From positions 1 to 37,222 of the IMG/VR virus record IMGVR_UViG_3300010388_000138: a stretch of DNA of 37,222 nt; one strand, written 5' to 3'. Every line of letters starts with the position of its first letter. The first letter of the stretch is position 1. The position numbers and the translations under genes were made by a program. The DNA comes from a virus. Positions 1 to 7,067 of this stretch are shown here, one piece after another. Below the pieces are notes generated by a model that made no database searches, had not been told where the DNA came from, and saw only the letters and a program-made list of their open reading frames with translations.

Positions 1-69
1 AGCACCAGCACCAGCAGGAGGAGATCAGCACCAGCACCAGCACCAGCAGGAGGAGGAGATCAGCACCAG
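1..69. repeat. AGCACC-rich terminal repeat, left copy
   Basis: Tandem AGCACC units are broken by GGAGGAGATC (about 17-26) and GGAGGAGGAGATC (about 49-61). Bases 1-48 are identical to 37175-37222, so the two ends overlap and the sequence closes into a circle or is terminally redundant. Because the closure lies inside a short tandem repeat, the assembled copy number may be wrong (collapsed or truncated). It could be an origin or packaging-linked repeat or coding minisatellite; see the candidate reading frame crossing the junction. Confidence 0.85.
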
Positions 70-79
70 TCCTGATAAC

Positions 80-709: not shown

Positions 710-988
710 ATGATTGCAATACACACTAAATATATAAGCGCGTCAAATTCACGCGGTAGTAGAATTAAAGCCTATACAGCGGCGCATGGTGATTTTAAAG
801 GCTTTACAGCTACTATTTCATATCCAAGCGAATTGAGCGGCGTAGCGTGTCATTTTGCAGCTGTTAAAGCCTTGGTTGAAAAAAACAAACTTAACTGGAA
901 TTTAGAAAATATGCGCTATGGTGACAGCGCCGACGGGCGCGGGTATTCATTTTGTTTTGACGCGTCAAAAGTAGGTGGCGCGATATGA
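710..988 (+). CDS. Conserved small phage/plasmid-type hypothetical protein (92 aa)
   Basis: ATG at 710 is preceded by GAGAGAG about 9 bases upstream. The N-terminal pattern (residues 5-20, TKYISASNSRGSRIKA), followed by a segment with an SG-H-AAVKAL arrangement (about 43-56), resembles a small protein of unknown function that I have seen in many phages and plasmids of proteobacteria. I know no assigned function for it. The product has no membrane segment and no obvious catalytic motif. Its stop overlaps the start of the next gene (ATGA), which indicates an operon with translational coupling. I am confident that it is a gene and not confident about its role. Confidence 0.75.
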   Translation: MIAIHTKYISASNSRGSRIKAYTAAHGDFKGFTATISYPSELSGVACHFAAVKALVEKNKLNWNLENMRYGDSADGRGYSFCFDASKVGGAI

Positions 989-1185
989 ATATCTTAACAA
1001 TTGAATGGGACGGTAAAAAAGTGCAGTTACCTACCAGTGAAGTAAAAAAAGTCTGTTTAGAATTATGCTCAGGCCTTGTTCCATCGTTTCAGGCCGTAAG
1101 AGCGCGCGAATTACGCGCGGCCCTTGCTAAACATAAAAAAGTAGTATGCGGTAAATATAATTTATCTATTCAGGATTTACCTTAG
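985..1185 (+). CDS. Hypothetical protein (66 aa)
   Basis: The start overlaps the stop of the preceding gene as ATGA (985-988), the usual joint in this genome. The product is a small, basic, soluble protein with a short beta-rich start (residues 1-14) and a helical Lys/Arg-rich second half. I recognise no family. Downstream (1186-1262) lies a 77-base gap with a direct repeat TAGCGCGTTAT at 1197-1207 and 1211-1221 before the clamp gene. Co-transcription with neighbours on both sides is likely. Confidence 0.6.
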   Translation: MNILTIEWDGKKVQLPTSEVKKVCLELCSGLVPSFQAVRARELRAALAKHKKVVCGKYNLSIQDLP

Positions 1186-1262
1186 ATTCCAGCGTGTAGC
1201 GCGTTATTAATAGCGCGTTATGCGGTGTAATTTTGCACCTAATAAAAATAAAGGCTAACAAA

Positions 1263-2228
1263 ATGAAAAATATAATTTTCGCTGAAGTAACAAAACAGGC
1301 ATTAAAAGAACGCGCCGTCGGGTATCGTGTCGCAAAATTCGAGAGTGATTGCGTAAAATTGCGGACCAGTATGTTAAACGTTGAATTATATAAACAGCAT
1401 AATACTGACGCGGTTTTAGAGTTATCAATGTTAAAAGCGTTTAAGCTAGACGACATACAAGCCGATTTAACCGTAAAAAATAACGCGTTACCATTATCTG
1501 AGCGTGAATATTTTGAAGGCGCTAATCAAGCGCTTAAAGGCGATGCTATTCAATACATACCAGCAGGCTATATTAACGCTAAGTGGCTTAAAATGTTACC
1601 TAAGGCTAACGAAGTCAGATATTACTTAAATGGCATGAGTTTTAAAAGAGAAGCGGGTAAATTGCAGGTAGTGGGGTCAAATGGTCACACTTTAATTTTA
1701 AACAACGCGATCAGCGAAAACGGTCCAGACTTTAGCGTAATAATTCCAAGTGAAGCTTTGCAAGTGCTAACAAAAATAAAAACATCTTTTACAATGGCCG
1801 TTAATGAAACTCACGCTAAATTTACAGGTGATGACTGGACCATTGAAACAAAATTAATTGACCATCGGTACCCTGACTTCTCAAAAGTATTTAAAAGGGC
1901 GATACACGGCGATATAGATATAAATAGAAAATCGTTAATTCAAGCGATAAAAGACGTGTTACCATTTTTACCGCCTAAGATGCAAGGCGTGGTTTTAACC
2001 GCTACTAATACAGGCCTGGACTTTAACCATCATGGCGACACGCTTGCAAGCGTTCCATTCATTCATTCAAGCGGCACAAAAGCAAGTGAAGGCGTTGACC
2101 TTAACTATTTAATGAACGCGCTGGAATGTTATAAAGACGAAAACATTATGCTAAGTTTTCGCGAAAATTTAATTCAAATTAACCGCGACAGCTTTCAAAC
2201 TATTATCGTTATGAGTATGATAATATGA
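1263..2228 (+). CDS. Probable beta sliding clamp (DnaN-like), diverged N-terminus
   Basis: The 321-aa product resembles the bacterial DNA polymerase III beta clamp over its last two thirds. Residues about 96-210 look like clamp domain II, including FSVIIPSEALQVL (158-170) and IETKLIDHRYPDF (194-206), which corresponds to the SKLVDGRFPDY region of the E. coli protein. Residues about 215-321 look like domain III, with a C-terminal VDLNYLMNALECY...SFQTIIVMSMII that parallels the E. coli tail ending in VVMPMRL. Residues 1-95 do not show domain I features. A clamp encircles DNA and tethers polymerase and repair enzymes. I chose ATG 1263 (AAGG about 9 bases upstream) over an upstream TTG at 1233. 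Length is somewhat below the usual 366 aa. Phage-encoded clamps of this type are uncommon beside a family A polymerase. Confidence in the fold is moderate, based on motif resemblance only. Confidence 0.65.
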   Translation: MKNIIFAEVTKQALKERAVGYRVAKFESDCVKLRTSMLNVELYKQHNTDAVLELSMLKAFKLDDIQADLTVKNNALPLSEREYFEGANQALKGDAIQYIPAGYINAKWLKMLPKANEVRYYLNGMSFKREAGKLQVVGSNGHTLILNNAISENGPDFSVIIPSEALQVLTKIKTSFTMAVNETHAKFTGDDWTIETKLIDHRYPDFSKVFKRAIHGDIDINRKSLIQAIKDVLPFLPPKMQGVVLTATNTGLDFNHHGDTLASVPFIHSSGTKASEGVDLNYLMNALECYKDENIMLSFRENLIQINRDSFQTIIVMSMII

Positions 2229-2293: not shown

Positions 2294-2318
2294 GGGCGGC
2301 TAATAACCGCCCTTTTTT
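2294..2318 (+). terminator. Rho-independent terminator 1
   Basis: GGGCGG (2294-2299) pairs with CCGCCC (2307-2312) across a short AT-rich loop and is followed by TTTTTT. It lies directly after the clamp gene and the 20-aa frame. Confidence 0.85.
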
Positions 2319-2336
2319 ATTGCGTCAAACAATAGC

Positions 2337-2358
2337 AAGGCCTTAACAGGCCTTTTTT
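2337..2358 (+). terminator. Rho-independent terminator 2 (tandem)
   Basis: AAGGCC (2337-2342) pairs with GGCCTT (2349-2354) across TTAACA, and the T-run continues to 2358. Together with the preceding terminator it makes a double stop for the rightward block. Confidence 0.75.
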
Positions 2359-2886: not shown

Positions 2887-5157
2887 TTATTTGATTGCTA
2901 CAACTTTTGCAACAGGTTTTTGCTCTGCTAAGTCCCGAAGGCTAGATTTGCTCATGTGCGCAAACTCAGGTGCGCAGAAGACGTGCTTCTTAGTCTTAGA
3001 CGAACGCGATGCACACATACCGACATCAACCCACCCTGCTTCTTCGAGTGCATGGAACAGCGCAGCAGGCGGGAATTGTTTACAGCCAAACGACATAGCG
3101 GCTCGCTCACATATCGCTTGAAACGGCGAGGCAATCACACCGGACGCAAACTCACCCATGCGAAGTGAAATCATATCCAGCAGTGATGACTCAACAGCAG
3201 ACATGCCATTCTGCACAAGCGACATCTTAAAGTCCGTCATAGGCGCAGGCGCGGCAGGGTTGAACGCCGACACGTCACGCAAAAACAACCAGTTGGCTAT
3301 AAGGTCATATCCGCCGTTGCCAAACCAGCTCCAAATATGTGACGCGGCGGCAGGAGAGATACGCGACGCGCTACTCCAAGTAGCAAACCACCGACGGTCA
3401 CCGCTTTCGAGTGACAGCGGTACACGGTCATTAGAGAACGCAAGCACAGCAAGACGGTTCACGAGATTGTATGGGGCAAGGCCTTTGCGGTTAACGGACA
3501 GCATCTCAGGCGGCGCGGCGATAACTGGCTTGAGTTTATTAGCAAGCATCCGACGCGCGGCGCTGTCAGCTTCTTTAAGCTCGTTAATGACCACAATCTC
3601 TGCTTCAAGATGGTAGCCCCACGCCGACTGAATCGTGTCAGTAGACATCAGTGAATAGTTGCGCAGGTGTGGGCCGCACACGGCGTAAATGAACGGCGCG
3701 TACATGGTGTCCTTACCAATACCTTGACCACCAGCGTGAAGGATAGCGTGGTTAATCTTAACGCGCGGATTCTGTACCTTGAACGCCATATAGTCCCAGA
3801 TATGCGCAAGCTCACGCTCGTCAGGAACGAGGGATTTGCAATGGTCGAGCCATAGAGATATATCACCACCCAAATTTCCGCCACGAGATGAATCTGGGCG
3901 AGCGTCGCGCCACCGGTTGCCATACAATTCACCGTCACGCATAGCGATAACAGTGTCACCAGCAGCGAAGGTAATACCAGCAAGCACCTTAGCGCCCATT
4001 ACCTGACGGTTCTCGTCAAAGCTCATAGCCGCTTCTACTTTACGGTCAGAGTGAATACTCTTGCACGACACATGACGATACACCGCGTTAAATGTCTGAC
4101 GTGAAAATTCACGACGGTTTTGCAAATCGAAATAAGAATCGTCAGACATAACGTAGGCAAAGCGCTGATACCACTCTGCCTTCTCAAGCCGTGCGATTTC
4201 TTTCTGTTCAACTTCTGCAATGATAGCCGCCGCGTCAGTGCTGAACATATCCGACGGTTCGAGTTTGCCAATGGCATTGTGCATCACCTCCGCAAGGATT
4301 TCCTCACGAAGACCGTGTGAGTGCTTAGGTCCACCCATCTCAGCTACCCACGCGAGGTAAGTACGGCTGTCCCACGACGCGCAATGACCATGAAAGCAAC
4401 AGTAGGCGCGGTTGAGCGGGTGGTATCTACCCATCAGTTGCCCATCAGTATGCTCGGCGTGGTTAGGGCAGACCACCCCAACCCAACCCTCAGCGTTAGC
4501 AGACTCCATCACGTCACCACGAGAAGCTAACCAGTCAAGCACTTCATCACTGCCTGTGTCAATGATAGCGATTGGACGCACAGACGCTGTGTCAGCATCA
4601 GACGGGTGAACGTCAAGCGCGTCACATATCTGCGCGAGGGCAAACTCACGCTCAGGATGAAATTCTACAAGGATAGACTGAAATGACGCGCGGTCAGGCT
4701 TCAAATTGACCGACGCAGGGAGACGAAAATTCCGCACAGGGTTAATTGCGCCACTGTCAGTGTAGCCAGCGTCAGCGATTGCTTTAATAGCTGCACTGAA
4801 TTCACCTTTCGTTGGCATATCATCTAAAGCAAACGTGTAGCCCCATTGAAAATTCTGCGGTGAGGTTTCCATTATCCACGTCGGCTCAATGGGCGGGCGC
4901 AAACTCTTAGTGCCAATGTCATCTAGCACGAGAAACGCGACATACTCGCAGTTACCCGCACTCGCAGACGGTTTGCCATCTTTAAAGCGTGACGTGATAA
5001 ACGACGCGGTATTGCCATACCACGCACCCTTACCATCGTACTTTGCTGGCAGGTAGGCAGGCCACGCGAATTGGCCGTTGTCTTTAGCTATTTGTTTGAC
5101 CAAAAGGACGCTCTCGCCTTCAGGTGCTATTCTCTCTAAATACTTAACAAAATTCAT
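2887..5157 (-). CDS. Primase-helicase (VirE/DUF5906-type SF3-like helicase)
   Basis: The 756-aa product combines priming and unwinding for phage DNA replication. Residues about 70-170 (FLVLDDIG with Asp79/Asp80, METSPQNFQWGY) resemble RepB/archaeo-eukaryotic-type primase domains. A likely zinc site follows (Cys230-x2-His233, then Cys253/254, His256, Cys259). The helicase part has a P-loop GGQGIGKDT (476-484), an acidic motif IVVINELKE (521-529) and FSNDRVPL..GDRRWF (574-591), the pattern of the virulence-associated E / DUF5906 family. I chose ATG 5157, which overlaps the polymerase stop (ATGA), over an upstream alternative start. It is last in the leftward operon and ends before hairpins and a terminator. 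The helicase call is firm; the primase call is probable. Confidence 0.85.
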   Translation of the reverse strand: MNFVKYLERIAPEGESVLLVKQIAKDNGQFAWPAYLPAKYDGKGAWYGNTASFITSRFKDGKPSASAGNCEYVAFLVLDDIGTKSLRPPIEPTWIMETSPQNFQWGYTFALDDMPTKGEFSAAIKAIADAGYTDSGAINPVRNFRLPASVNLKPDRASFQSILVEFHPEREFALAQICDALDVHPSDADTASVRPIAIIDTGSDEVLDWLASRGDVMESANAEGWVGVVCPNHAEHTDGQLMGRYHPLNRAYCCFHGHCASWDSRTYLAWVAEMGGPKHSHGLREEILAEVMHNAIGKLEPSDMFSTDAAAIIAEVEQKEIARLEKAEWYQRFAYVMSDDSYFDLQNRREFSRQTFNAVYRHVSCKSIHSDRKVEAAMSFDENRQVMGAKVLAGITFAAGDTVIAMRDGELYGNRWRDARPDSSRGGNLGGDISLWLDHCKSLVPDERELAHIWDYMAFKVQNPRVKINHAILHAGGQGIGKDTMYAPFIYAVCGPHLRNYSLMSTDTIQSAWGYHLEAEIVVINELKEADSAARRMLANKLKPVIAAPPEMLSVNRKGLAPYNLVNRLAVLAFSNDRVPLSLESGDRRWFATWSSASRISPAAASHIWSWFGNGGYDLIANWLFLRDVSAFNPAAPAPMTDFKMSLVQNGMSAVESSLLDMISLRMGEFASGVIASPFQAICERAAMSFGCKQFPPAALFHALEEAGWVDVGMCASRSSKTKKHVFCAPEFAHMSKSSLRDLAEQKPVAKVVAIK

Positions 5158-7067
5158 TTTCCGTATCTCTCTAATGTTGAAACACCAACAGCTAACGGTA
5201 AGCCTTCTGCCCAAGCAGGCGCGCTACACATCACCGTTTCCAAGTCTTGCGCGGCGCTTTCCGCGTCTTCTTTTTTCACTTCTAAGACGATTTCATCGTG
5301 AACATGAAGCACGACAGTATGCCCGATTCGACGCAACGCGTCACGAAGTAAATCGTTAGCAATCGCTTGTGTAATATTCTCACAAGCAAGTCCAGCCCAC
5401 AGCCTAGCTCGCGGCCATTCGACTGCATCAGCAGCGGGTTTCCACGCCGCTTTAGCGTAAGATACGCTACCATCTTCAATATACGCTGACGGGTAACACA
5501 GCACCCGACCCGAAGGCAGGGCGTACCACAAATTCACACCGTCAAACAGATACGTCACGCGCCCAGCGCTAAACTCACGTCCTTTGTGACGCATGGCGCA
5601 CATATACGCCCGCTCAAGCTCACCCCAGTATTGCACCGCCCAAGTATTACTGCGACGCCACGCGTCAACCGTGCGCTTAGCCTCCGCTTCAGGCAGTGAG
5701 ATACCATAGGCTTTGCCCATCGCGCCAAACGCGCCAGCGCCCCCCATATAGCCGCACGACAGAATAGCCACTTTACCAATTTGGCGTTGGTCAGGTGTGA
5801 TGGCGTCCATCGGACGGTTAAAGATACCTGCCGCAGCGCGAATGTAGATGTCCTCTCCTGTGCGGAACACGTCAAGCACGTCTTCACTGCCATGCTGCAA
5901 ACTTGCCCAAGGCGTCACACGCGCTTCGATACCTGCCCAATCTGCTACCACGAACACGTTTCCGTCAGACGGCATCAGCGCAGGGCGAAGCATACCTTTC
6001 AGAACGTCCGTCACGCGCTTGCCATGCACTGGAACGATGTTACGTCCCACAACCATATCATCACGCACTCGCTGTGGCTCTTTGGCACATTTACGCGTGA
6101 AGTTATGCACCTGCGCACCATACGATGACGCTCGACCAGTTGCACTGCCCCCATTAAACACAAACGCGCCACGCACACGGTGGTCTTCTAAGTCAGCAAG
6201 GTAAAGCAAACGGTTAAATTTAGCAACAGACGATGCCCACAAGTCATCAGCGCACTGAATTACCTCACCGACGCGCGGTGGGATTTCTTCAGGGTCGTCC
6301 ATCAGCATTAGATTAGCGCGAACGCTTTTATCGATGGAATACTTCTCACCGTTCCACATCAGCTCACGCGCGGCAGGGCCGACACGCTCAAGCACCCACT
6401 CACGCATCTTAGGTGAACGAACGGACTTAATTGCCCCGTCCGTTAGCTCCACGACACGCGATTGGATTTCCTCAAGCTCAACACTGGCGTAACGCATTGC
6501 GGCGCGGCACAGGTCAACGTCCACCAAAACACCCGCGTCGTTAATGCGCTCATTGACGTGATAATCCGCAAGCTCGTCATCAGTCAACTGACGCAGTGCC
6601 GTAGACACTGCTCGCATAGTCCGCACGTCTTGACGGCAATACTCAATTAGCTCAGGTAGCAATTTGGTGTTGAATGGTGGAGTGCAGCACTGCTTGACTA
6701 GCATCTTGCCACGATGGTCTTTGCGCATCTCGCTAGAGATAGCACGACCAACGTCTTCAAGACTGCCCGGAAGACAATTAGCGCGGGCTTGCACAGCCGT
6801 GCAGTAAAACTGCTCTAGCTTAAAGTCTATCTGAAGAACGTACCAAAAGATTAGCCGCTCAAAGGCGGCGTTATGGGCGCGTATCTGACCCGTGTAGTTG
6901 CGCACGTCATCGGGGAACGGCAAGTCAGGCATCCATGTTTGCACATCACCGTCATCGAAAGCGTAGCACATACACAGCACGTCAGTAGTCAGGTCTTGCG
7001 CGTAATTGTAGACGCCGTGTTTTGGCAGGTCACATTCGCTTCTTGTTTCAAAGTCAATATATAGCAT
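5154..7067 (-). CDS. Family A DNA polymerase with 3'-5' exonuclease
   Basis: This 637-aa replicative polymerase is of the Pol I type without a 5' nuclease. Exonuclease motifs are IDFET (Asp5, Glu7), HNAAFE (65-70) and EYCRQD (142-147). Polymerase motif A is ADWAGIEARV (Asp376), motif B is RQIGKVAILSCGY (Arg428, Lys432, Tyr440), and motif C is HDE (590-592). All expected catalytic residues are present. The family is typical of phages that carry DUF2815 and DUF2800 partners, as here. The ATG follows immediately on a T7 tract ending a GC hairpin, and the strong Shine-Dalgarno lies upstream of that hairpin (see the 7068-7101 element), so output may be set by RNA structure. The stop overlaps the primase start. 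Confidence 0.95.
   Translation of the reverse strand: MLYIDFETRSECDLPKHGVYNYAQDLTTDVLCMCYAFDDGDVQTWMPDLPFPDDVRNYTGQIRAHNAAFERLIFWYVLQIDFKLEQFYCTAVQARANCLPGSLEDVGRAISSEMRKDHRGKMLVKQCCTPPFNTKLLPELIEYCRQDVRTMRAVSTALRQLTDDELADYHVNERINDAGVLVDVDLCRAAMRYASVELEEIQSRVVELTDGAIKSVRSPKMREWVLERVGPAARELMWNGEKYSIDKSVRANLMLMDDPEEIPPRVGEVIQCADDLWASSVAKFNRLLYLADLEDHRVRGAFVFNGGSATGRASSYGAQVHNFTRKCAKEPQRVRDDMVVGRNIVPVHGKRVTDVLKGMLRPALMPSDGNVFVVADWAGIEARVTPWASLQHGSEDVLDVFRTGEDIYIRAAAGIFNRPMDAITPDQRQIGKVAILSCGYMGGAGAFGAMGKAYGISLPEAEAKRTVDAWRRSNTWAVQYWGELERAYMCAMRHKGREFSAGRVTYLFDGVNLWYALPSGRVLCYPSAYIEDGSVSYAKAAWKPAADAVEWPRARLWAGLACENITQAIANDLLRDALRRIGHTVVLHVHDEIVLEVKKEDAESAAQDLETVMCSAPAWAEGLPLAVGVSTLERYGK

What the first reader, a model, noticed from the sequence alone, without database searches (positions are those of the whole stretch)
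1263..2228. Beta-clamp-like gene with a foreign N-terminus in a phage that has a family A polymerase
Residues about 96-321 carry clamp domain II and III signatures, including a C-terminal VMSMII resembling VMPMRL. The first 95 residues do not look like domain I. Family A polymerase phages generally use other processivity factors or none. A two-domain or replaced-domain clamp could form an unusual ring, recruit host Pol III, or act as a decoy for host clamp partners.
Basis: partly seen in the sequence, partly recalled or inferred. Interest (0 to 1): 0.72.

Follow-up and report, generated by a model that had tools for sequence, protein, structure and literature searches.

The report
Degenerate sliding-clamp homologue in phage
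This bacterial virus carries a shortened, heavily altered copy of the ring protein that holds bacterial DNA polymerases on DNA; it keeps the groove that partner proteins plug into but has lost most of the known residues for closing the ring and touching DNA, so it may bind or divert host replication proteins rather than work as an ordinary clamp.

Summary
The gene at 1263-2228 is real, conserved and under purifying selection: 18 full-length relatives, about 70-89% identical, dN/dS about 0.12. Residues about 93-321 are bacterial beta-clamp (DnaN) domains II and III: PF02767 at 1e-11, solved clamps at 1e-16, AlphaFold pLDDT about 90. Residues 1-92 match no clamp domain I by sequence or profile. 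The structure model drapes them as a reduced domain I, but at pLDDT below 55 and from an alignment biased that way. "Foreign N-terminus" is therefore unproven; "degenerate domain I" is likelier. The VMSMII tail is a window-only decay of the MGMRL that nearly all relatives keep.

New here: the family keeps the partner-peptide pocket but loses the listed ring-interface and DNA-contact residues. Sister phages (polymerase 63-69% identical) carry, in the same slot, a 198-aa "mini-clamp" (domain II plus half of III) with the same pattern. A more distant relative (MW202483) has no detectable clamp. The E. coli Dhillonvirus TheodorHerzl also pairs a family A polymerase with a mini-clamp.

Best reading, about 45%: a clamp-derived partner-binding protein (host-factor trap or adaptor), not a canonical sliding clamp. 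Main rival: a rebuilt ring serving phage replication. Everything about function is inference.

The parts
1263..2228 (+). clamp-homologue gene, 321 aa
   Evidence: 18 full-length relatives, purifying selection
1263..1538 (+). residues 1-92: unrecognised N-terminus, probably a reduced clamp domain I
   Evidence: no sequence or profile match; low-confidence model with clamp half-domain order; dN/dS as low as the core
1539..1901 (+). residues 93-213: clamp domain II
   Evidence: PF02767; pLDDT about 85-90
1902..2225 (+). residues 214-321: clamp domain III
   Evidence: phrog_947, solved clamps, pLDDT about 90; PF02768 only below its cut-off in relatives
1617..1628 (+). R119-L122 (RYYL), pocket subsite I
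   Evidence: identical to E. coli R152-L155
1677..1694 (+). S139-L144 (SNGHTL), pocket; E. coli TDGHRL 172-177
   Evidence: G, H and L kept in 18 of 18, R176 lost
1749..1754 (+). S163-E164, positions of DNA-facing E. coli R197-K198
   Evidence: K198 replaced by E in 18 of 18
1869..1889 (+). Y203-V209, pocket; includes P204 and V209 (E. coli P242, V247)
1962..1979 (+). PFLPPK, position of the E. coli dimer-interface residues I272-L273 and neighbours
   Evidence: P and F in 18 of 18
2097..2108 (+). D279-Y282, pocket subsite II (E. coli N320-Y323)
   Evidence: Y kept in 18 of 18, N to D in 17 of 18
2205..2225 (+). I315-I321 (IVMSMII), C-terminal tail, pocket; (I/V)MGMRL in most relatives
1194..1239 (+). 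two conserved hairpins in the leader of the clamp gene
2294..2354 (+). two terminator-like hairpins after the clamp gene
2887..5214 (-). primase-helicase (DUF5906), same phage replication operon
5154..7067 (-). family A DNA polymerase
   Evidence: PF00476, phrog_17; no canonical clamp-binding motif found

Best explanation
The gene encodes a clamp-derived partner-binding protein rather than a canonical DNA-encircling clamp. It keeps DnaN domains II and III, and so the groove into which clamp-binding motifs of host proteins (Pol III alpha, clamp-loader delta, repair polymerases, MutL, Hda) dock. Its domain I is reduced beyond recognition, and the known ring-closing and DNA-channel residues are mostly gone. 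Encoded in a small operon separate from and convergent with the polymerase operon, it most likely binds host clamp-binding proteins. That would either trap them, for instance the clamp loader, so that host replication stalls while the phage copies itself with its own family A polymerase, or bring selected host proteins to phage DNA. Shown here: homology, residue pattern, selection, synteny. Inferred: time of expression, oligomeric state, partners and effect.
For: Pocket sites kept (0.67 of sites carry a residue seen in bacterial clamps) while dimer-interface (0.17) and DNA-contact sites (0.01) are lost; 44 other phage full-length clamps keep 0.94, 0.64 and 0.73; mini-clamps show 0.69, 0.10 and 0.06. 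In the well-aligned core: I272 to P, L273 to F, E298-E301 deleted, R197 to S/T/G/N, K198 to E in all 18. Five sister contigs with polymerase 63-69% identical carry a 198-aa mini-clamp in the same slot, made of domain II plus the half of domain III that completes the pocket. A relative with polymerase 55% identical has no detectable clamp, so that polymerase type does not need one. The clamp diverges faster than the replication proteins (70-89% against 94-97% for the polymerase). No canonical clamp-binding motif in polymerase or primase. Monomeric E. coli clamp with I272A and L273A binds delta about 50 times tighter than the dimer (PMC11139829).
Against: The channel helices are still net positive and the protein is basic, pI about 8. 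PFLPPK is invariant in the family and may form a new interface. Domain III is complete, unlike in mini-clamps. Pocket residues R176 and P363 are changed in all 18, N320 in 17 of 18, and R365 in the window, so affinity for clamp-binding motifs is not certain. Many mini-clamp phages show no polymerase of their own, for which a Pol III trap would be self-harming. Domain I site counts rest on an uncertain alignment.
Confidence: 0.45

Rival explanations
1. A working but rebuilt sliding clamp: the protein forms its own ring (for example a dimer with a small domain I) through a new interface, is loaded by the host clamp loader, and tethers the phage polymerase, host Pol III or host repair proteins to phage DNA.
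For: Model superposes on whole clamps, Z 28, 2.6 A over 312 residues; complete domain III; purifying selection along the whole protein; invariant PFLPPK segment at the interface position; channel helices net positive; phage clamps exist in many phages.
Against: Known interface and DNA residues lost; N-terminus at pLDDT below 55; no clamp-binding motif found in the phage polymerase; same slot holds a 1.5-domain protein in sister phages.
Confidence: 0.37
2. True domain replacement: residues 1-92 are an unrelated domain fused to clamp domains II-III, giving a two-domain clamp with a new activity or a trimeric ring.
For: No detectable similarity of the N-terminus to any clamp; the lead into domain II has the length seen in mini-clamps, which begin there.
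Against: Predicted helix-strand-strand-strand order is that of a clamp half-domain; distant phage clamps L043 and L053 show a shrinking but recognisable domain I; no other family matches the N-terminus.
Confidence: 0.13
3. A decaying remnant without function, most advanced in the window copy.
For: The window copy has lost the terminal Arg-Leu (MSMII), and L002, its nearest relative, ends in MGMRS.
Against: Open frame of constant length in all aligned relatives and dN/dS about 0.1 throughout.
Confidence: 0.05

Closest known systems
Bacterial DnaN / beta sliding clamp (PF00712, PF02767, PF02768)
   Same: Domains II and III by sequence and model; most of the partner-peptide pocket
   Different: Domain I unrecognisable and about 30 residues shorter; dimer-interface and DNA-contact residues lost; basic rather than acidic
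Phage mini-clamps (phrog_3007, labelled RusA-like Holliday junction resolvase; Dhillonvirus, L095 and relatives)
   Same: Pocket kept, ring and DNA determinants lost; same genomic slot in sister phages; equal-length lead into RYYLNG
   Different: 172-245 aa, no N-terminal region, and only the second half of domain III
Short-domain-I phage clamps L043 and L053 (342 and 351 aa)
   Same: Profile match over domains II-III (E 2e-20); shortened domain I; grouped with the window family in the domain II tree (84/84)
   Different: Domain I about 103-112 residues with a recognisable TDLD motif; no family A polymerase detected on those contigs
Full-length phage clamps (phrog_947), e.g. Vibrio phage vB_VpaS_AL-2 (324 aa, next to a DNA polymerase that reads like family B)
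   Same: Phage-encoded clamp, similar length
   Different: AL-2 matches phrog_947 over its whole length at 9e-65 including domain I; the window protein only from residue 116

Membership tests
DnaN / beta sliding clamp | central domain (PF02767) | tested here: met
   E 1.1e-11, over cut-off
DnaN / beta sliding clamp | C-terminal domain III (PF02768) | tested here: met
   Below the Pfam cut-off (relatives 8e-5 to 0.04), but matched by phrog_947, solved clamps, profile-profile and a model with pLDDT about 90
DnaN / beta sliding clamp | N-terminal domain I (PF00712) | tested here: inconclusive
   No sequence or profile hit; low-confidence clamp-like model
DnaN / beta sliding clamp | partner-peptide pocket residues | tested here: met
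   About two thirds of 18 sites carry a residue seen in bacterial clamps; R152, L155, G174, H175, L177, P242, V247, Y323, M362 identical in all 18
DnaN / beta sliding clamp | dimer-interface residues | tested here: not met
   2 of 12 sites in the window protein; I272 to P, L273 to F, acidic loop deleted
DnaN / beta sliding clamp | DNA-contact residues of the channel | tested here: not met
   0 of 9 sites in the window protein; helices still net positive
DnaN / beta sliding clamp | closed ring loaded on DNA, raising polymerase processivity | not testable with these tools
   needs multimer modelling and biochemistry
Phage mini-clamps (phrog_3007) | 172-245 aa, starts at domain II, only second half of domain III | tested here: not met
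   The window protein has a full domain III and 92 extra N-terminal residues; phrog_3007 matches only residues 115-213 (2.8e-11)

The most novel reading that the evidence does not exclude
Phages that bring their own family A polymerase use clamp-derived proteins, stripped to the partner-binding pocket, as decoys that capture the host clamp loader or Pol III and so shut host replication without harming their own. The 321-aa protein and the 198-aa mini-clamps at the same locus are two versions of this device.
Probability: 0.27. Interest if true: 0.75.

Novelty: new variant of a known kind. Interest (0 to 1): 0.48.

Why it matters
Phage proteins that bind the bacterial clamp from outside are known (for example Gp168, structure 7evp). 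A phage protein evolved from the clamp itself that keeps the pocket but drops ring and DNA contacts would be a different strategy, and the swap between a 321-aa and a 198-aa form at one locus in phages with related polymerases makes it testable. If it is instead a working ring, it would show how far clamp interfaces can be rebuilt. The mini-clamp family, labelled RusA-like resolvase in PHROGs, deserves re-annotation either way.

Tried and rejected
First AlphaFold run on the close family alone: failed, pLDDT 38.6. Profile search of the N-terminus against 124 full clamps and against L043/L053: no signal; against the full clamps no better than shuffled columns. tblastn of the N-terminus against 50,697 phage records: chance hits only. 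Domain II tree: canonical clamps form a clade without the window family (97/94), but an AU test does not reject placing it with them (p 0.39) and long branches are involved, so descent from mini-clamps or from full clamps is unresolved. Strict link of reduced clamps with a phage polymerase: rejected; 8 of 50 mini-clamp records have a clear family A polymerase, against 1 of 49 other clamp records, five of the eight are close relatives of each other, and many records are fragments. The PF03175 PolB search is uninformative because its control rang nowhere. Pseudogene: rejected on selection. Upstream TTG start at 1233: rejected, relatives share the ATG. Papers on a truncated or phage-encoded beta clamp: none to the point in the held library, which misses most subscription journals.

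Full report
WHAT IS THERE. The ORF at 1263-2228 encodes 321 residues. Pfam finds the clamp central domain at 115-205 (E 1.1e-11); PHROGs finds a processivity factor family at 116-311 (4.5e-24); solved bacterial clamps match 116-302 (1.3e-16). A first scan of viral contigs gave 19 loci: 18 full-length relatives at about 70-89% identity, of constant length with the same ATG, and one partial. Almost all end in (I/V)MGMRL or (I/V)MAMRL, so VMSMII in the window is a local decay of the canonical tail. The ratio of nonsynonymous to synonymous change among relatives is about 0.12, equal in residues 1-95 (0.123) and in the core (0.117): the odd N-terminus is a maintained part of the protein.

THE N-TERMINUS. 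Residues 1-95 match nothing: no PF00712, no profile-profile signal against 124 full-length clamps, a score reached by 15 of 60 shuffles, and only chance tblastn hits. The first AlphaFold run, on close relatives alone, failed (pLDDT 38.6). The second, with 85 diverse clamps, gave pLDDT about 90 for residues 95-321 and 35-54 for 1-90, with helix 2-15 and strands 21-27, 30-35, 40-45, the order of a clamp half-domain. The whole model superposes on solved clamps (Z 28, 2.6 A over 312 residues). This leans towards a reduced domain I, but the alignment itself suggested that pairing. Two distant phage clamps, L043 and L053, have a shortened yet still recognisable domain I and show that shrinkage happens.

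RESIDUE PATTERN. At pocket, dimer-interface and DNA-contact sites, the fraction of residues seen in at least 4% of bacterial clamps is 0.67, 0.17 and 0.01 in the window family; 0.94, 0.64 and 0.73 in 44 other phage full-length clamps; 0.69, 0.10 and 0.06 in 44 mini-clamps. Part of this depends on an uncertain alignment of domain I, but the core alone shows I272 to P, L273 to F, E298-E301 deleted, R197 to S/T/G/N and K198 to E. Against over-reading: the channel helices remain net positive and the protein is basic, and an invariant PFLPPK segment lies where the dimer interface would be, so a new interface could exist.

GENOMIC SETTING. The gene ends a small rightward gene cluster (710-2228) and is followed by two terminator-like hairpins. 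It faces the convergent replication operon: primase-helicase, family A polymerase, a 212-aa protein that looks like an ssDNA-binding protein by position (PHROGs label nucleotidyltransferase), and a PD-(D/E)XK exonuclease. Relatives carrying the clamp keep this order, with polymerase 94-97% and clamp 70-89% identical. Five contigs with polymerase 63-69% and primase 59-60% identical carry, in the same slot, a mini-clamp of about 198 aa: domain II plus the second half of domain III. MW202483, polymerase 55% identical, has no clamp by three searches. The Dhillonvirus TheodorHerzl of E. coli K-12 has a family A polymerase and a mini-clamp. Most other clamp-encoding viral records show no family A polymerase. 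No canonical clamp-binding motif was found in the phage polymerase or primase, though such motifs are degenerate.

INTERPRETATION. The parts kept are those that bind partner peptides; the parts lost are those known to close the ring and touch DNA; and at this locus related phages manage with 1.5 domains or with none. I favour a clamp-derived partner-binding protein (0.45). A host-factor trap is the sharpest version: monomeric E. coli clamp mutated at I272 and L273 binds clamp-loader delta about 50 times tighter than the dimer (PMC11139829), and a phage with its own polymerase could afford to block Pol III. A recruiting adaptor fits equally well for phages that depend on host Pol III, which most mini-clamp records may be. 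A rebuilt ring (0.37) is the main rival. A true domain replacement (0.13) and decay (0.05) are less likely. All functional steps are inference.

NOVELTY. Phage clamps as such are well known. A phage clamp homologue with pocket kept and ring and DNA determinants lost, replaced by a mini-clamp at the same locus in sister phages, is a new variant as far as the tools and the held literature show.

Noticed in passing
L095:4971-5567; L030:3992-4510; many of L199-L267: A large family of 172-245 aa phage proteins made of clamp domain II plus the second half of domain III, ending in IMPMRL-like tails or tail extensions; PHROGs labels them RusA-like Holliday junction resolvase (phrog_3007), apparently a mislabel. 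Three half-domains per chain would allow a tetrameric ring, untested.
   Followed up: partly
window 1194-1239: Two adjacent hairpins just before the clamp gene are strongly conserved in relatives (one compensatory pair, several G-U changes); no Rfam match. Possible regulatory leader.
   Followed up: partly
window 710-1185: Two small upstream ORFs of unknown function; the first matches phrog_3199 and is kept in many relatives, the second only in L002.
   Followed up: no
window 1263-2228 versus 5154-7067: Synonymous divergence of the clamp gene is about twice that of the polymerase gene in the same genome pairs, suggesting recombination or exchange of the left region.
   Followed up: no
window 1-75: The record begins with a short imperfect repeat (agcaccagcaccagcaggaggag...), perhaps an assembly edge or a real low-complexity end.
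   Followed up: no
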